DNA from: an uncultured Eubacteriales bacterium
GTDB lineage: Bacteria > Bacillota > Clostridia > UBA1381 > UBA9506
Length of the DNA stretch: 49,837 nt
Assembly (NCBI GenBank): GCA_949299615.1
Contig: CASGBM010000017.1
Span: forward strand, 1 to 49,837
Reading direction: 5' to 3'
In this document: piece after piece, positions 36,130 through 42,748 of the stretch
Position numbering within the stretch: position 1 is the stretch's first letter
How the letters are laid out: the number at the start of each line of letters is the position of its first letter
Position numbers and translations under genes: made by a program
Notes under the pieces: generated by a model
Database searches by the model: none
The model's input: only the letters and a program-made list of their open reading frames with translations
What the model was told of the DNA's origin: nothing

Positions 36130-36165
36130 AAAAGCTGACCCTGCTAAAAAACAAGGTCAGCTTTT
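36130..36165 (+). terminator. Terminator of kduI-kduD
   Basis: AAAAGCTGACC (36130-36140) pairs with GGTCAGCTTTT (36155-36165); 24 bp after the kduD stop. Confidence 0.8.
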
Positions 36166-36311: not shown

Positions 36312-38060
36312 CTAATTTGCTTGCGCAAATGCATACTCTCCAATAAACAGCACCTGATCATTTTTATCATCACGGATAAAAAAGACAAACGGTTGATCTG
36401 CCCGGAAAACGACCAGCTCCGGCTGCTGTATTGCAGATGTGGCTCCTCCCATGCCTCCCATGGTAATCACCGCCGCTTCCGTGCCGTTTTCGTCCACTTC
36501 AATATATGTTTTTTGAAGTACCGTCATCAGATATGTATTATAATCCGGATTCGGTGTTGTCATTGCGCCAAATTCTGCTAACGCGCTGTCATACGCCAAA
36601 TTCATCCCCATGGATTTCAAGGCTTCGTCAAAGGAAGTCGCCGTCTCCACTTTGAATTTTGGCATCATCAGTTCTACTCTTTTGTTTTCCATGAAATCCA
36701 GGTATTTTTCCGGATTTTCACATTCTCCCAATACCAGATACATGGAAAAATTATAATCTTCATACGGCAGACGCACCATCTGCATCGTATCATCTGCATA
36801 ATAGAGCGCTTGCAAAGTCTGGTTTAAAAAACTAATCTCACTCTGCTTGCCGTTTTTATCCGTAAAAATATCTTTTTTGGTTTGCGATGCCGCAAACGGT
36901 TTTGCCCAGGCTGCTTTAAAATACACCGCATTGAGCAGGCAAGCTAAAAAATCCTCTCTATCAACCAAGTCCTCCGTCAAAATATCTGTTATTTTCCCAT
37001 GCGTTTTTTCTTTAACCCATCCGTTAACAGTGCTGAGAGCGTTTTGACGGTTAATTTCTCCCGCTTCTCCATCGTAAAACTCCTTCACCAAAGCTTTATA
37101 AGAATCCAAAAATTGCATTTTGCTGGGATGGTCCGTATTGAGCCAAATCGAATTGGCAATTTCAATCGCGACTTTATCCTTTTGTGCGTATTCTGCCATA
37201 AGGCCTTTCGCATACTCATTATACTGCGCAATCTCACTGGTTGATAGCAGCGAAAGAATTTCTTCCTGCGTCTTGCCTTCCGCCCCGTTAGCGATTAAGG
37301 CAAGTGCCATTTCAAGGCTCAGAGGTGAGTACATATAATTTTCATCCTGCGGCATCCATTCTCTTAGTTTCCAAGATAGCGGCTGCGTGTTTTCGTTTTT
37401 CGCCGCCAAAAGGCGGTCTGCATCTTCTTGGGTGCAAACCTGTTTTTCCACTAGTTGGTCTAACACAGTTGCACCGGAAGCGGTTTTTGCCAGAAGAGAA
37501 GCATAGCACAGGTATACAGCATCGCTTCGCAGCAGTTGATAATCTGCCGCCTCTACTGCAAGTCTTGCATACTCATTAGAAAAAAGCCCTGCCTCTATTG
37601 CTTTTTCATACACGTTATCTAATGTCAAATCGCGGTAACCCATAATTCCAAGCAGCATTTTAGCAAATTCCCGTCCTGTCACACCGCGCCCAGGCAGAAA
37701 CTCGGTTTCAGAAACGCCGTTTATGTACCCTCTCTCCACTCCAAAAGCAATGTGCGGCGCCATCCAGCTTGTTTCTTCTACATCGGAAAACCCTGTCATC
37801 TTGTTTCCCGAAAGTGCAGTTTTTTCCTCACCAGCCATTCGTACAGCCAAAGCCGCCGCCTCTGCCCGTGTTACGCCGCGCTCCAGCTCCATTCCATCTT
37901 CCGTGCCGTAAAACAAGTGAAGCTGTGCCAAAACTTCCGCCTCCTGTTTTGCCAAAGGAATCTCCGTCTGCGTATCTCCAATCCGATACCCTGCCGCTGG
38001 CAAAACCGCACTCACAGCTAAAATTACACTGAGAAAAACTGCCCACCTTGCCTTTTTCAT
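36312..38060 (-). CDS. Secreted serpin with N-terminal S-layer homology domains
   Basis: A 582-residue secreted protein. A signal peptide covers residues 1-24, and SLH-type repeats lie at about 35-195 (G-V-T-R-A-E-A-A-A-L-A-V-R-M, F-S-D-V-E-E-T-S-W-M, G-Y-I-N-G-V-S). The serpin domain runs from about 225 to the end (Y-S-P-L-S-L-E-M-A-L-A-L-I-A-N-G-A-E-G-K-T, L-L-N-A-V-Y-F-K-A-A-W, F-R-A-D-Q-P-F). The reactive-loop hinge E-N-G-T-E-A-A-V-I-T (524-533) is of the inhibitory type, and counting from Gly526 places P1-P1' near Ala540-Thr541, suggesting an elastase-like target. So a cell-surface-tethered suicide protease inhibitor. Upstream on the same strand are a sensor kinase and regulator. Confidence 0.9.
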   Translation of the reverse strand: MKKARWAVFLSVILAVSAVLPAAGYRIGDTQTEIPLAKQEAEVLAQLHLFYGTEDGMELERGVTRAEAAALAVRMAGEEKTALSGNKMTGFSDVEETSWMAPHIAFGVERGYINGVSETEFLPGRGVTGREFAKMLLGIMGYRDLTLDNVYEKAIEAGLFSNEYARLAVEAADYQLLRSDAVYLCYASLLAKTASGATVLDQLVEKQVCTQEDADRLLAAKNENTQPLSWKLREWMPQDENYMYSPLSLEMALALIANGAEGKTQEEILSLLSTSEIAQYNEYAKGLMAEYAQKDKVAIEIANSIWLNTDHPSKMQFLDSYKALVKEFYDGEAGEINRQNALSTVNGWVKEKTHGKITDILTEDLVDREDFLACLLNAVYFKAAWAKPFAASQTKKDIFTDKNGKQSEISFLNQTLQALYYADDTMQMVRLPYEDYNFSMYLVLGECENPEKYLDFMENKRVELMMPKFKVETATSFDEALKSMGMNLAYDSALAEFGAMTTPNPDYNTYLMTVLQKTYIEVDENGTEAAVITMGGMGGATSAIQQPELVVFRADQPFVFFIRDDKNDQVLFIGEYAFAQAN

Positions 38061-38139: not shown

Positions 38140-39351
38140 TTAATCAGAAAAAAGTTCCAAAACGGTCTTTTCGTCCGGCTTATTTTTACTTCTCTCCGTT
38201 TCCTTTTCACATTCCGGTAAAGCGCAGCTAATATGTTCGCCCATTGGCAACACAATCGTAAATTGGGTGCAGCAGTCCGCACTTTCGGCTGTGATACTGC
38301 CGCCGTGGGCTGTTACAATTTCTTTTGCAATTGCAAGTCCAAGCCCCGCTCCGCCGCTGCGGCTGGAACGGGACTGGTCAAGCCGGTAAAACTTTTCAAA
38401 AATGGTTTCTAATTTTTCCGGAGGAATTGTCTCCCCTTTGTTTGAAATCGTAACAATAACAGTATCCTCCATCTTTGCATTTATTTTTATACTGCTCTTC
38501 TGATTGCTGTATGCCAAAGCGTTTTTCAGTATATTATTAAACACCCTTGCCAGTTTATCTGCATCCCCATAAAGATATAGCTCTTCCGGCGCCACAATTT
38601 CAATCTGTTTTTCTTCCGCTTTTGCAATTGGGTAAAATTCATCTGCCAACTGACGCAATAGCAAAGACAAGTTAAATTTCCTTTTTTCCAGCGGAATCCG
38701 CTGCAAATTAAACCGGGTAATTTCAAAAAATTCGTCTACAAGGTTTTCCAATCGATTTGCTTTTTCCAGCGCAATATGCGTATATTTTAATCTTTGCTGC
38801 TCCGGCATAGCATTTGCCTCTTCCAACAGACTCAGATAACCAATCACTGAAGTTAACGGTGTACGAATATCGTGCGCAAGATACATCACCAAATCGTTTT
38901 TTCTTTGTTCCGCCTCCTTTGCTTCATTTGTGCGGGTTTCCAATTCAATTTTCAGCTGGTTCAGCCGGTTTTCTACGGTTTCCAGTTCCGGCAGAAGTTC
39001 AATTTTTCTTGCCCCTGTATCCGTGATCAAATCTATTCCCCGGCTAATGTCATCAAAGTAACCGGTCATCCAGGAAACAAACAGGCGAATAAAGAAAAAA
39101 GATAATATGACAATTGACACCGCCATAATCCCGTTCATATTTTCCCGAATTAACGCGTCGTAAATGCCCAGTGCCGAATCATAAGATATTGACAGCATGG
39201 CGCAAATCAACTCTACAAGGATATTGCCCAGGTATCCCCGTACCATAGTACGCAAAAAAAAGACAGAAAAAAATGCCAACAGGACAAGCAGCACAATTCT
39301 CGTAAATAGTTTTCTTTTCAGTCGATGATAATCCCCTTTTCTACGTTTCAA
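38140..39351 (-). CDS. Sensor histidine kinase, VanS-like
   Basis: A 403-residue membrane sensor: two membrane helices (about 15-40 and 70-92) around a short loop, a coiled linker (about 110-145), the dimerisation/phospho-acceptor helix with His160 in A-H-D-I-R-T-P-L-T-S-V, and an ATPase domain with N-N-I-L-K-N-A-L (N box), F-E-K-F-Y-R-L-D (F box) and G-G-A-G-L-G-L-A-I-A-K (G box). It resembles VanS but no vancomycin ligase genes are near, so resistance should not be assumed. The start overlaps the regulator gene by 11 bp. The serpin gene follows 79 bp downstream and could belong to its operon. Confidence 0.92.
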   Translation of the reverse strand: MKRRKGDYHRLKRKLFTRIVLLVLLAFFSVFFLRTMVRGYLGNILVELICAMLSISYDSALGIYDALIRENMNGIMAVSIVILSFFFIRLFVSWMTGYFDDISRGIDLITDTGARKIELLPELETVENRLNQLKIELETRTNEAKEAEQRKNDLVMYLAHDIRTPLTSVIGYLSLLEEANAMPEQQRLKYTHIALEKANRLENLVDEFFEITRFNLQRIPLEKRKFNLSLLLRQLADEFYPIAKAEEKQIEIVAPEELYLYGDADKLARVFNNILKNALAYSNQKSSIKINAKMEDTVIVTISNKGETIPPEKLETIFEKFYRLDQSRSSRSGGAGLGLAIAKEIVTAHGGSITAESADCCTQFTIVLPMGEHISCALPECEKETERSKNKPDEKTVLELFSD

Positions 39352-40036
39352 TTTTATAGCCTACCCCCCATACCGTTTTTATATATTTCGGATGTTCGCC
39401 CGAATCGTTCATTTTTTCCCGTAAGTGCCGAATATGCACCATAATCGTATTGTTGCTGCTGGTATAATATTTCTCGCCCCACACCTCACGAAAAAGCTGT
39501 TCTGAACTCATCACTTTGCCTTTATTTTTGCAGAGTTGCCACAAAATAGAAAATTCTGTCGGCGTCAGCACAAGTGTTTTTTCATTTAACGTGCATTCAT
39601 GCGTTTCTTTGTTTAGCACAATGCCGGATACCGTCAGTACATTATCCTCTTCCTGCACCCCCGTATTATATCTGGTATAACGCCTGAGCTGTGCTTTGAC
39701 CCGGGCAACCAGCTCAAGCGGCAGAAACGGTTTTGTGATATAGTCATCTGCCCCCAGGGTTAGACCGTTAATCTTATCTGTTCCGCTGTCCTTTGCCGTC
39801 AGCATGATCACAGGATAACGGTAATGCCGGCGAATATATTTACACAGTGAAAAGCCGTCCCCGTCCGGCAGCATAACATCCAAAAGGGCAAGATCTATTT
39901 TCTGCTCTTCAATCAGTTTCTTTGCCTGCTCCACATTACCCGCCTTTAACACCAAAAAGTTTTCATTATTTAAATATACTTCCACCAAATCCGCAATCTC
40001 GTTTTCATCGTCAACAACCAAAATCTGATAACTCAT
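39341..40036 (-). CDS. OmpR/VanR-like response regulator
   Basis: A 231-residue response regulator. The receiver domain has the acidic pocket D9-D10, phospho-acceptor Asp53 (L-L-D-V-M-L-P-D-G-D-G-F), the Thr in M-L-T-A-K and the Lys in T-K-P-F. A winged-helix DNA-binding domain covers about 130-231 (L-T-P-T-E-F-S-I-L-W-Q-L, T-V-W-G-V-G-Y-K). The second of two adjacent ATGs is taken because it lies 7 nt after GGAGG. It is the first gene of a regulator-kinase pair. Confidence 0.93.
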   Translation of the reverse strand: MSYQILVVDDENEIADLVEVYLNNENFLVLKAGNVEQAKKLIEEQKIDLALLDVMLPDGDGFSLCKYIRRHYRYPVIMLTAKDSGTDKINGLTLGADDYITKPFLPLELVARVKAQLRRYTRYNTGVQEEDNVLTVSGIVLNKETHECTLNEKTLVLTPTEFSILWQLCKNKGKVMSSEQLFREVWGEKYYTSSNNTIMVHIRHLREKMNDSGEHPKYIKTVWGVGYKIET

Positions 40037-40170
40037 CATAATCCCTCCCTATAATTACTGCTCTATTCATATTCTATATCAAATTATACCGAAATTTGTC
40101 ATATAAAGTCTTAAAAATTTCTTAAATTTATGATTATTGTACTACAAAATAAAAAAAAATTCAAAACTGC

Positions 40171-40225
40171 TTGACAATTTATTAATGGAAGAATATAATA
40201 ACATATGAACAAATGATCATATGTT
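40171..40225 (+). promoter_or_regulatory. Promoter and ArsR operator of the metal-efflux operon
   Basis: A perfect sigma-A promoter: TTGACA (40171-40176), 17 bp, TATAAT (40194-40199). Directly after it lies an inverted repeat AACATATGA-8 bp-TCATATGTT (40200-40208 and 40217-40225), the type of site bound by CadC/CzrA-like ArsR repressors, covering the transcription start. Confidence 0.85.
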
Positions 40226-40241
40226 TATTGGAGGTGATTGT

Positions 40242-40607
40242 ATGATTGATCAAAACAATATGGAACGGTGTGACTTTATTCACGCCCACGATGATATAAT
40301 TCAAAAAGTAAAGGCACAGATGCCGGAAGATGAAATTCTTTATGATCTTGCAGAACTGTTCAAATTGTTTGGCGACTGCACCCGCATTAAAATCTTATAT
40401 GTTTTGTTTGAATCGGAAATGTGCGTCTGCGATCTCGCACAGCTTTTAAATATGACGCAGTCGGCAATTTCCCATCAGCTCCGTGCCTTAAAACAAAACA
40501 AATTGGTAAAAAGCCGGCGGGACGGCAAAACCGTTTTCTACTCTTTGGCTGATTCTCACGTGACAACCATCATAAATCAAGGGATGGAACACATATCGGA
40601 ACCATAA
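40242..40607 (+). CDS. ArsR/SmtB-family metal-sensing repressor
   Basis: A 121-residue winged-helix repressor. There is a Cys/His-bearing N-terminus (M-E-R-C-D-F-I-H-A-H-D), then L-F-K-L-F-G-D-C-T-R-I-K-I-L and the characteristic metal-box E-M-C-V-C-D-L-A-Q-L-L, followed by T-Q-S-A-I-S-H-Q-L-R-A-L-K recognition helix and G-K-T-V-F-Y-S-L-A-D-S-H-V. The C-V-C box plus N-terminal Cys suggests cadmium/lead sensing; the C-terminal D-x-H-V could form a zinc site. GGAGGTGAT before the ATG at 40242 fixes the start. It probably releases the operator when metal binds. Confidence 0.93.
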   Translation: MIDQNNMERCDFIHAHDDIIQKVKAQMPEDEILYDLAELFKLFGDCTRIKILYVLFESEMCVCDLAQLLNMTQSAISHQLRALKQNKLVKSRRDGKTVFYSLADSHVTTIINQGMEHISEP

Positions 40608-40659
40608 TAGCTGGATAGCCGGTTTTGGAATCGAATCCGCTAAATTAAAGGAGGATATT

Positions 40660-40878
40660 ATGAAAAAAACATATCAGCTTGAAAATTTGGATTGTGCAAA
40701 CTGCGCCGCTAAAATGGAACGGGCTATCCGTAAAATAGACGGCGTGCATTCCGCCAGCATCCATTTTCTAACTCAAAAATTAATACTTGAGGCGGACGAG
40801 ACAAACTTGGAAAATATATTAAAAGAATCCATTAAAGTTTGCAAAAAAGTGGACTCTGACTGTTCCATTATCATTTGA
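40660..40878 (+). CDS. Heavy-metal-associated (HMA) domain protein
   Basis: A 72-residue single HMA domain with the metal-binding loop D-C-A-N-C-A-A-K (C-x2-C) and a late Cys-rich tail (V-C-K-K-V-D-S-D-C). In most cadmium/zinc ATPases this domain is the N-terminus of the pump; here it is a separate gene 16 bp before a pump that lacks it. So it likely delivers metal to the ATPase. GGAGG ribosome binding site. Confidence 0.92.
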   Translation: MKKTYQLENLDCANCAAKMERAIRKIDGVHSASIHFLTQKLILEADETNLENILKESIKVCKKVDSDCSIII

Positions 40879-40894
40879 GAAAGGCGGCAGACAT

Positions 40895-42748
40895 ATGACT
40901 TTGAAACAAAAAAAAATGCTGGTTCGCATTCTTGTCAGCGCTGCTTTTTTAGTAATTGCTTTTGCTTTGCCGGTAACCGGCTGGCTTCGCCTCATTTGTT
41001 TTTTACTGCCCTATGCAATCATTGGCTGGGATGTGGTTTTAAAAGCGATTCGCAATATACTGCACGGTCAGTTATTTGATGAAAACTTTTTGATGGCTTT
41101 GGCTACCATCGGCGCCTTTTGTATCGGGGAATATCCGGAGGGCGCGGCGGTTATCCTGTTTTATCAAGTGGGAGAGCTGTTTGAAAGTTACGCTGTCGGC
41201 CGTTCGCGCCGCTCCATTTCTGAGCTGATGGACATTCGTCCTGACTATGCAAATATTGAAAAAGAAGGCGAATTAAAACAGGTGTCCCCAGAGGAAATTG
41301 CGGTTGGGGATGAGATTATTATCAAAGCGGGCGAACGCATCCCATTAGACGGAGTGGTAACAGAAGGTTTCTCTACCCTAAACACCTCTGCACTGACCGG
41401 CGAATCCCTGCCGCGCGAGGTTGCACCCGGCTCTTCGGTTATCAGCGGCTGCATTAATCAAACCGGACTTTTGCATGTAACGGTCACAAAACGGTTTGAA
41501 GAATCGACAGTATCTAAAATCTTGGACTTAGTGGAAAATTCCAGCTCTAAAAAAGCGCGCACAGAAAATTTCATTACACGCTTTGCGCGTTATTATACGC
41601 CGGTGGTAGTCTTATGCGCCGTGCTGTTAGCTTTGGTTCCTCCTTTGATTTTTCAAGGCGGCTGGAGCGACTGGATCCACCGTGCTTTTATCTTTTTGGT
41701 TGTATCTTGTCCCTGCGCCCTGGTCATATCCATTCCGCTCAGCTTTTTCGGCGGCATCGGCGGCGCCTCAAAATGCGGAATTCTGGTCAAAGGCGGAAAT
41801 TATCTGGAGGCGCTTGCCCGTACGGATACGGTCGTATTTGATAAAACCGGTACATTGACGGAAGGCGTTTTTGAAGTATCCTGCATTCATCCTGAACCGG
41901 GCTGGCAAGAGGAATCCTTGTTAGAATATGCCGTTTTAGCAGAAAGTTATTCTGACCACCCGATTTCTCTTTCCCTGCAGGCGGCTTATACAAAACCGCT
42001 GGAAAAAAACAGAGTTGCCGACACAGAAGAAATTGCCGGACACGGAGTAAAAGCAACCATTGACGGAAAAAGCGTCCACGTAGGCAATGGAAAACTGATG
42101 TCACAAATACGCATTTCCTGGCACGAATGTCACCTGGCAGGAACCGCCGTGCACATTGCTGTTGACGGGGCCTATGCCGGTCACATTATCATTTCTGACC
42201 GCATTCGTGCTGACGCAAAACAAACAATTCAAGAACTGAAGCGGCAGGGCATCCGCAAAACTGCCATGCTGACCGGTGATGTGAAGAGCATTGCGGAGTT
42301 GGTTGCCAAACAGCTGGAGATTGATGAATTTCATGCTAATCTTTTACCCGCAGATAAAGTGGTATGTTTGGAGCAAATGATGAACGAACCCTCAAAGAAA
42401 GGAAACCTTCTGTTTGTCGGCGACGGGATTAACGATGCCCCTGTGCTGGCGCGGGCGGACATTGGGGTCGCCATGGGCGGTCTGGGGTCCGACGCAGCGG
42501 TAGAAGCGGCTGATATCGTTTTGATGGATGATAAACCCTCTAAAATTCCGCTTGCGATCCAAATTGCCCGCCGAACATTAACCATTGTCAAACAAAATAT
42601 TGTGTTTGCCCTGTTGGTCAAATTTTTTGTACTCATTCTCGGGGCGTTTGGATTAGCAAATATGTGGGAAGCGGTTTTTGCCGATGTCGGAGTAGCTGTA
42701 ATCGCTATATTAAATGCCTCCCGAGCCCTTCGCATTCGCTTTCGGTAA
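40895..42748 (+). CDS. P1B-type heavy-metal ATPase (CadA/ZntA-like)
   Basis: A 617-residue metal-exporting ATPase, likely for Cd, Zn or Pb. It starts directly at the membrane helices without an N-terminal HMA domain. The metal-site motif C272-P-C274 (S-C-P-C-A-L-V) is in a membrane helix. The actuator motif T-G-E-S-L-P, the phosphorylated Asp316 in D-K-T-G-T, the nucleotide-binding H-P motif (S-D-H-P-I-S-L) and G-D-G-I-N-D-A-P are all intact. The last helix ends A-I-L-N-A-S-R-A-L-R, typical of the Zn/Cd subgroup. Third gene of the ArsR-controlled operon. Confidence 0.95.
   Translation: MTLKQKKMLVRILVSAAFLVIAFALPVTGWLRLICFLLPYAIIGWDVVLKAIRNILHGQLFDENFLMALATIGAFCIGEYPEGAAVILFYQVGELFESYAVGRSRRSISELMDIRPDYANIEKEGELKQVSPEEIAVGDEIIIKAGERIPLDGVVTEGFSTLNTSALTGESLPREVAPGSSVISGCINQTGLLHVTVTKRFEESTVSKILDLVENSSSKKARTENFITRFARYYTPVVVLCAVLLALVPPLIFQGGWSDWIHRAFIFLVVSCPCALVISIPLSFFGGIGGASKCGILVKGGNYLEALARTDTVVFDKTGTLTEGVFEVSCIHPEPGWQEESLLEYAVLAESYSDHPISLSLQAAYTKPLEKNRVADTEEIAGHGVKATIDGKSVHVGNGKLMSQIRISWHECHLAGTAVHIAVDGAYAGHIIISDRIRADAKQTIQELKRQGIRKTAMLTGDVKSIAELVAKQLEIDEFHANLLPADKVVCLEQMMNEPSKKGNLLFVGDGINDAPVLARADIGVAMGGLGSDAAVEAADIVLMDDKPSKIPLAIQIARRTLTIVKQNIVFALLVKFFVLILGAFGLANMWEAVFADVGVAVIAILNASRALRIRFR

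What the first reader, a model, noticed from the sequence alone, without database searches (positions are those of the whole stretch)
36312..38060. Cell-surface serpin: inhibitory serpin joined to SLH anchors
A hinge of inhibitory type (E-N-G-T-E-A-A) with small residues near P1 suggests inhibition of elastase-like proteases, tethered to the cell wall by SLH repeats. That fits defence against host or competitor proteases in a gut setting.
Basis: partly seen in the sequence, partly recalled or inferred. Interest (0 to 1): 0.55.

Follow-up and report, generated by a model that had tools for sequence, protein, structure and literature searches.

The report
Wall-anchored serpin in Clostridia
This gene encodes a secreted protease-trapping protein (a serpin) fused to a wall-binding module, so the bacterium probably holds a one-shot protease trap on its surface; both halves are known families, but I found no description of the joined form, which recurs across one order of Clostridia.

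Summary
ORF 36312-38060 (minus, 582 aa) is a signal peptide, an SLH region and a full serpin. Pfam scores one SLH repeat over cut-off; the predicted structure shows a whole SLH trimer like Paenibacillus SpaA. The serpin has the inhibitory hinge E-N-G-T-E-A-A, and miropin is its best Foldseek match. The genome encodes CsaB, which makes the SLH ligand; the residues proposed to form one ligand groove (Gly52, Trp99, Arg178) are invariant in all 10 aligned rows (window plus 9 relatives). A wall-tethered inhibitory serpin is well supported by sequence and predicted structure; neither binding nor inhibition is shown.

The target is open. Small residues at the scissile site are usual for bacterial serpins, and P10-P9 (Val-Ile) departs from the usual Ala-Val. 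Elastase specificity and host defence are guesses; protection of its own surface proteins is at least as likely.

New here: this is not one odd fusion. Serpins occur in 35 of 95 genomes of the order; of 30 loci examined, 21 carry SLH, 7 a copper-amine-oxidase-N domain, 2 neither. The anchor changed 5 to 7 times on the serpin tree. My searches of the held papers found no description of SLH-serpins.

The parts
36312..38060 (-). Gene for the SLH-serpin protein (582 aa)
   Evidence: ORF; Pfam Serpin + SLH
37989..38060 (-). Secretion signal, about residues 1-24 (no lipobox Cys); cleavage site judged by eye
   Evidence: sequence MKKARWAVFLSVILAVSAVLPAAG
37833..37964 (-). SLH repeat 1 (about residues 33-76), below the Pfam cut-off; HLFYG (Gly52) and TRAE (64-67)
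   Evidence: SLH-trimer fold of residues 21-228; alignments A4, A5
37662..37790 (-). SLH repeat 2 (residues 91-133), Trp99, GYING (111-115), TGRE (128-131)
   Evidence: Pfam E 5.5e-8; whole-genome search gives the same place
37494..37634 (-). SLH repeat 3 (about residues 143-189), diverged: GLFSN, LRSD with Arg178
   Evidence: SLH-trimer fold; Arg178 invariant in all 10 rows of A5
36315..37385 (-). Serpin domain (residues 226-582)
   Evidence: Pfam E 3.9e-76; Foldseek miropin 5ncs E 3.2e-28; VIA-align Z 36.3-41.1 in the 50 rows shown
36462..36491 (-). Hinge of the reactive loop, residues 524-533 (ENGTEAAVIT; P17-P8)
36417..36461 (-). Exposed reactive loop, residues 534-548 (MGGMGGATSAIQQPE); canonical P1-P1' would be A540-T541
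   Evidence: alignment; pLDDT under 50 for 530-544, as for a mobile loop
38068..38074 (-). Ribosome-binding-site-like GAGGAGG
   Evidence: sequence
36130..36165 (-). Terminator-like hairpin downstream of the gene
   Evidence: 16-pair stem then T-rich tail; the scan as a whole is at background rate (5 found, 4.2 expected)

Best explanation
A secreted inhibitory serpin held on the outside of the cell wall. The signal peptide exports it (inferred). The N-terminal SLH trimer binds the pyruvylated wall polymer made with CsaB (inferred from fold, residues and gene content). The C-terminal serpin presents a glycine-rich bait loop; a serine protease that cuts near A540-T541 is acylated to the loop, dragged across and inactivated (mechanism established for the serpin family, recalled; inferred here). 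[quoted passage not shown] Most likely role: a sacrificial shield for the bacterium's own surface proteins against proteases of small-residue specificity (subtilisin- or elastase-like), whether from neighbours, from the host or its own.
For: Serpin domain and fold: Pfam E 3.9e-76, AlphaFold2 mean pLDDT 88.7, miropin best Foldseek match, VIA-align Z 36.3-41.1 in the 50 rows shown. Inhibitory hinge: P17 Glu, P15 Gly, P14 Thr, P13 Glu, P12 Ala, P11 Ala, P8 Thr all as in relatives; S53, P54, S56 and N186 equivalents kept (position names recalled). SLH trimer. Ligand side: CsaB TIGR03609 279.8 bits against a cut-off of 213.1, over cut-off in 84 of 95 genomes of the order; 89 SLH matches in the genome. 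By the rule in PMC6081394 (passages; Gly29 of SLHn, Trp13 of SLHn+1, Arg43 of SLHn+2), groove 1 is complete (Gly52, Trp99, Arg178), and these three are invariant in all 10 rows, window included. An N-terminal module recurs: of 30 order-level loci, 21 SLH and 7 CuAO-N. Precedents: dockerin-serpins of cellulosomes (PMC5301203, PMC12484212, passages) and another inhibitor, BsuPI, fused to SLH (PMC3901451, passages).
Against: No binding or inhibition was measured. Hinge P10 is Val (Ala in 34 of 37 family rows) and P9 is Ile (2 of 37), which could slow loop insertion and favour substrate behaviour. Groove 3 is unlikely to bind and groove 2 lacks a clear Trp13. The nearest relative, of the same genus (G001; 58% identity over residues 215-580), has no SLH module, and 2 of 4 genomes of the genus have no serpin match, so neither anchor nor serpin is essential. 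Four relatives have lipobox-like signal peptides (L003, L008, L009, L012, by eye), so membrane anchoring can replace or add to wall binding.
Confidence: 0.6

Rival explanations
1. Host-directed version: the surface serpin chiefly neutralises host luminal or neutrophil elastase-like proteases, as siropins do in vitro.
For: Small residues at the counted P1; siropins of Eubacterium siraeum inhibit human neutrophil elastase and proteinase 3 and are cut after Val (PMC5127057 section 7); some relatives come from animal guts by record title.
Against: Small P1 is generic to bacterial serpins; Thr alone takes 27 of 42 other rows. Most titles of close relatives state no source. No host target was tested.
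Confidence: 0.25
2. Self-protection version: the serpin guards the cell's own SLH-displayed proteins, including against its own secreted subtilase.
For: 39 SLH-bearing ORFs were recovered from 32 stretches of the genome; of 20 scanned, four hold an enzyme domain (heparinase II/III-like, GHL10 plus amidase, M16 peptidase, phytase-like). The genome has one S8 subtilase, 1136 aa, with a signal-like N-terminus. Cellulosomal serpins are suggested to do this (PMC5301203, PMC12484212, passages).
Against: Serpin and S8 co-occur in 31 of 35 serpin genomes against 40 of 60 others (Fisher p 0.026), but permuting within genome-size tertiles gives p 0.14. G001, G021, G025 and G033 have a serpin and no S8 match. 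9 of the 20 scanned SLH ORFs have no Pfam domain beyond SLH.
Confidence: 0.35
3. Non-inhibitory serpin: the fold is kept for wall structure or binding and does not trap proteases.
For: P10 Val and P9 Ile in the hinge; Gln516 in place of the shutter His.
Against: The other hinge positions match; Gln at the shutter His is common (11 of 37 family, 14 of 42 others); the loop is more variable than average while the hinge is the most conserved 15-residue stretch (rank 326 of 326 from the lowest), as expected of inhibitory serpins.
Confidence: 0.12
4. The serpin is part of a VanR-VanS-like regulated operon and responds to cell-wall stress.
For: VanR-like 39341-40039 and VanS-like 38140-39351 lie just upstream on the same strand, 79 bases from the serpin; no minus-strand promoter-like or terminator-like match lies between (a consensus scan at background rate).
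Against: A VanS match at E 1e-60 or better occurs in 3 of 13 genomes, the window's own included, and in G004 it lies on another contig than the serpin; G001, L054 and L055 have other neighbours.
Confidence: 0.15

Closest known systems
Miropin (Tannerella forsythia serpin, PDB 5ncs)
   Same: Best Foldseek match, 27% identity; loop also begins GTEAA (alignment) and is longer than that of alpha-1-antitrypsin (length of the latter recalled)
   Different: No SLH module matched in the solved chain; P1 Lys of miropin (recalled) has no counterpart, as residues 534-551 here hold no Lys or Arg
Siropins 1 and 2 (Eubacterium siraeum)
   Same: Serpins from gut microbiota, one predicted extracellular, hinge of small residues (PMC5127057 sections 5 and 7)
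   Different: The main text of that paper holds no 'SLH' or 'S-layer' (term search); siropin letters were not on hand, so identity was not computed
Cellulosomal dockerin-serpins (PinA of Clostridium thermocellum; a group-6 dockerin-serpin of Ruminococcus flavefaciens)
   Same: Serpin joined to a module that places it on the cell-surface machinery (PMC5301203, PMC12484212, passages)
   Different: Dockerin into scaffoldin, not SLH into wall polymer; no dockerin found in this protein
BsuPI-SLH protein of Clostridium thermocellum (Chte0880)
   Same: Protease-inhibitor domain fused to SLH; that family also occurs with Cu_amine_oxidN1 (PMC3901451 passages)
   Different: Unrelated inhibitor fold (Ig-like), not a serpin
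Monoglobus pectinilyticus WP_320690919.1
   Same: SLH + serpin by Pfam, 616 aa, 35% identity over residues 220-576
   Different: Annotated only as 'serpin family protein'; its SLH part passes the cut-off for the whole protein, but no single stretch does at E 0.01

Membership tests
Serpin (Pfam PF00079, inhibitor family I4) | Serpin fold over the whole domain | tested here: met
   Pfam E 3.9e-76; Foldseek E 3.2e-28 to 5ncs; Z 36.3-41.1 in the 50 rows shown
Serpin, inhibitory type | Hinge P17 Glu, P15 Gly, P14 Thr/Ser, small residues P12-P9 (pattern recalled) | tested here: inconclusive
   P17, P15, P14, P12, P11 met; P10 Val and P9 Ile are not small (Ala in 34 of 37 at P10)
Serpin, inhibitory type | Shutter residues S53, P54, S56, N186, H334 (names recalled) | tested here: inconclusive
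   S245, P246, S248, N377 met; Gln516 for His, shared by 11 of 37 family rows (window included) and 14 of 42 other rows
Serpin, inhibitory type | Loss of protease activity through a covalent complex | not testable with these tools
   needs expression and assay
SLH wall-binding module (PF00395) | Three SLH repeats forming the trimer fold | tested here: met
   One repeat over Pfam cut-off; whole trimer by predicted structure and profile
SLH wall-binding module | At least one complete ligand groove (Gly29, Trp13, Arg43 from successive repeats) | tested here: met
   Gly52, Trp99, Arg178 by sequence alignment; invariant in all 10 rows; rule from PMC6081394. Placement in three dimensions not checked, coordinates not available
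SLH wall-binding module | Genome makes the pyruvylated wall polymer (CsaB) | tested here: met
   TIGR03609 279.8 > 213.1 bits
SLH wall-binding module | Binds cell wall | not testable with these tools
   needs a pelleting assay
Cellulosomal dockerin-serpin | Dockerin domain | tested here: not met
   Pfam lists Serpin and SLH only, at E up to 1

The most novel reading that the evidence does not exclude
These Clostridia share a lineage of surface-displayed serpins whose protease-trapping domain is kept while the anchor is swapped again and again (SLH of different types, a copper-amine-oxidase-N domain, lipid anchors, or none), and whose N-terminal placement of the anchor keeps each captured protease bolted to the cell surface: a wall-bound protease trap that bacteria fit to their own envelope.
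Probability: 0.4. Interest if true: 0.55.

Novelty: new variant of a known kind. Interest (0 to 1): 0.4.

Why it matters
In the passages that I saw, bacterial serpins are treated as free proteins or as cellulosome parts. A wall-anchored family, recurrent in one order of Clostridia and present in a named species (Monoglobus pectinilyticus; cultured and from the human gut, as I recall), gives a testable way for such bacteria to resist proteolysis at their surface and perhaps lower protease activity around them. The repeated change of anchor suggests that being held at the surface, rather than one particular anchor, is what selection keeps.

Tried and rejected
TCS linkage: the VanRS-like pair upstream looked like a regulator, but the linkage is not kept in the relatives examined.

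Own subtilase as target: raw co-occurrence with serpins was suggestive (p 0.026), but not after permuting within genome-size tertiles (p 0.14). In the largest-genome tertile all 36 genomes have S8, so the test has no power there.

Positive selection on the bait loop: residues 534-548 have mean pairwise identity 0.27 against 0.41 for all windows, but rank only 56th of 326 from the lowest; the loop near 446-460 is more variable. Seven hand-picked pairs give 32 of 105 identical loop columns against 1460 of 2420 for the domain (sums). I make no claim of selection.

Defective shutter (Gln516): rejected as special, since 25 of 79 rows share it.

Rows dropped or relabelled: 20 of 108 loci gave no ORF to my motif rule (17 of them among the 80; L078 is a cut copy with SLH-like sequence seen by eye). 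L027 and L076 were skipped. In one search the label rule put L004 in SLH_B because of its long N-terminus, and L074 in SLH_A on a weak hit; one search corrected the first and set the second aside. L066 was 'other', though Pfam gave it Cu_amine_oxidN1; L081 likewise. Recount: 7 changes on the best tree with L066 as CuAO, 6 without L015 (its gene shows a stop inside the match), 5 also without L019 (cut at a contig end); 1000 bootstrap trees without L015 give 5 to 7 (5% to 95%). The 37 'family' rows were chosen as close relatives, not by order membership.

VIA-align on the full model is read for residues 225-582 only, so its silence on SLH means nothing; the SLH part was folded and searched alone.

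Papers: no SLH-serpin description in the listings (20 of 255 papers listed); 'serpin' with 'copper amine oxidase N-terminal' gave one paper, on BsuPI. Only openly licensed papers are held. Where a paper is cited I saw passages or the named sections, not the whole text.

Full report
What is there. The ORF at 36312-38060 on the minus strand (582 aa) has an ATG start, a GAGGAGG site and a hydrophobic secretion signal. Pfam finds a serpin at residues 238-576 (E 3.9e-76) and one SLH repeat at 91-133 (E 5.5e-8). It is the only serpin match in its genome (G000, 2.39 Mb in 208 contigs, 97.66% complete), which has 89 SLH matches.

SLH part. Only the middle repeat passes Pfam. Two lines show that all three are present. 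A profile from 10 aligned rows (window plus 9 relatives) hits the Sap SLH structure at E 8.4e-24. Residues 21-228 folded alone (mean pLDDT 90.3, pTM 0.88), and the 15 best Foldseek matches (E 3.6e-6 to 1.7e-3) are all SLH structures of SpaA or Sap. PMC6081394 (passages) proposes that a ligand groove works if Gly29, Trp13 and Arg43 come from successive repeats. Here groove 1 has Gly52 (repeat 1), Trp99 (repeat 2) and Arg178 (repeat 3), all invariant in the 10 rows. Groove 2 has Gly115 and Arg65 but no Trp at the expected spacing; the nearly invariant Tyr151 may stand in, which I could not check. Groove 3 lacks the residues. The ligand-making enzyme CsaB is encoded in the genome (TIGR03609, 279.8 bits against 213.1) and passes its cut-off in 84 of 95 genomes of the order, and in 4 of 14 control genomes.

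Serpin part. The whole-protein model has mean pLDDT 88.7; below 50 are the signal, the linker 222-224 and the bait loop 530-544. The best Foldseek match is native miropin (5ncs, E 3.2e-28), and VIA-align gives Z 36.3-41.1 for the 50 rows shown, all serpins. The hinge reads E524 N G T E A A V I T533. Most positions fit the inhibitory pattern, but P10 is Val, shared with only 2 of the 36 other family rows, and P9 is Ile. Counted from the hinge, P1 is A540. In 35 of 37 family rows and 37 of 42 other bacterial serpins the counted P1 is Thr, Ser, Ala or Gly. So the 'elastase-like' hint is a general trait of these serpins, and the true cut site could shift: siropins are cut at P3-P2 and P6-P5 (PMC5127057 section 7).

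Relatives. A search of 61 genomes found a 53%-identical, nearly full-length relative in the same family (G004). In the order, 35 of 95 genomes have a serpin over cut-off, the window's own included (3 of 14 controls ring). That search listed 38 matches and holds 30 as loci; of these 30, 21 carry SLH, 7 a Cu_amine_oxidN1 domain and 2 neither (home-made models trained on Pfam-defined copies; 9 of these 30 genes were also scanned with Pfam and all 9 agree). One of the 7 (L187) is cut at a contig end. In the named-genome scan (80 loci kept of 523), I recovered ORFs for 63, of which 14 carry SLH with at least one repeat at E 0.001 or better. Their titles, or the origins shown with the tree, place 13 in Bacillota; L068 is titled only 'bacterium' and has the contig length of G026:C203. 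Of the 40 serpin rows from L079 on that entered the label step, 35 have a short N-terminus, 15 of them with a lipobox by a simple rule. Monoglobus pectinilyticus has an SLH-serpin recorded as 'serpin family protein'. Clostridium sp. MD294/ASF356 (L081) has a Cu_amine_oxidN1-serpin. No call names the window's order; that it is Monoglobales would be a guess.

Anchor swapping. On the best tree of 49 serpin domains the states SLH, CuAO-N and none need 7 changes over the labelled close relatives (35 rows; 36 rows, with L066 as CuAO-N); 6 without the doubtful L015 and 5 also without the contig-cut L019, and 5 to 7 over 1000 bootstrap trees without L015. An AU test rejects all SLH rows forming one side of a branch (p 4e-10), and all CuAO rows (p 3e-81). 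SLH being ancestral with repeated losses and swaps fits as well as repeated gains; many deep branches are unresolved. In the window's own genus, G001 has the sister serpin (support 100/99) without SLH, and two genomes have no serpin match, one of them only 77% complete. The serpin is thus optional, and its N-terminal module changes.

Context. A VanR-like (NF033117, 370.8 over a cut-off of 350) and a VanS-like gene (382.5, under 400) lie upstream on the same strand, with 79 bases between VanS and the serpin and no minus-strand promoter-like site between. The arrangement is not kept in the relatives examined, so I do not build on it.

Function. Shown: domain content, predicted folds, hinge, ligand-gene content, distribution. 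Inferred: export, wall binding, inhibition, target. Established for serpins in general (recalled): the protease ends up esterified to P1. With an N-terminal anchor, the trapped protease would stay on the wall. Whether the role is defence against host proteases, against neighbours, or care of the cell's own surface proteins is undecided. Of 20 SLH-bearing ORFs scanned (of 39 recovered), 9 had no Pfam domain beyond SLH, four had an enzyme domain, and one (L154:2732-4729) a dockerin. The one own subtilase is a candidate target, but co-occurrence across genomes is not significant once genome size is considered.

Novelty. Both families are well known, and two precedents join an inhibitor to a surface module: dockerin-serpins (PMC5301203, PMC12484212, PMC4582956; passages) and BsuPI-SLH (PMC3901451; passages). 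A large serpin phylogeny (PMC8233489) does not hold the terms SLH, S-layer or dockerin in its main text. The listings gave no description of an SLH-serpin. I call it a new variant of a known kind: solid, moderately interesting and testable.

Noticed in passing
38140-40039 (-): VanR-like response regulator (over the NCBIfam cut-off NF033117) and VanS-like kinase (just under cut-off), directly upstream of the serpin; no van ligase operon was looked for.
   Followed up: partly
40221-42748 (+): ArsR-family regulator followed by a P-type ATPase (Pfam), probably a metal-efflux pair, with a 12-of-12 TTGACA-17-TATAAT just upstream (40171-40199).
   Followed up: no
L135:1776-3932 (G000 contig 57): The CsaB ORF is fused to a GT4-like glycosyltransferase, and its residues 2-42 match the RadA start (TIGR00416). 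CsaB ORFs of about 750 aa are common in the order, so the GT fusion looks normal; the RadA start may be an assembly or start-site oddity.
   Followed up: partly
L154:2732-4729 (G000 contig 77): SLH protein with fn3 and a dockerin type I domain over cut-off: a dockerin in a genome where I did not look for cohesins.
   Followed up: no
L003, L008, L009, L012: SLH-serpins with lipobox-like signal peptides (by eye): a lipid anchor and a wall module in one protein.
   Followed up: no
L055:4897-7053: SLH-serpin (718 aa) with about 150 extra residues of unknown type between the signal and the SLH region.
   Followed up: no
L077:4792-6651: Serpin whose bait loop holds a run of six glycines (TVGGGGGGTAM), seen in no other loop printed.
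   Followed up: no
L203 (NZ_OY725739.1): A 368 kb Monoglobus record named 'plasmid 15' carries glgB beside the SLH-serpin; it may be a chromosomal piece.
   Followed up: no
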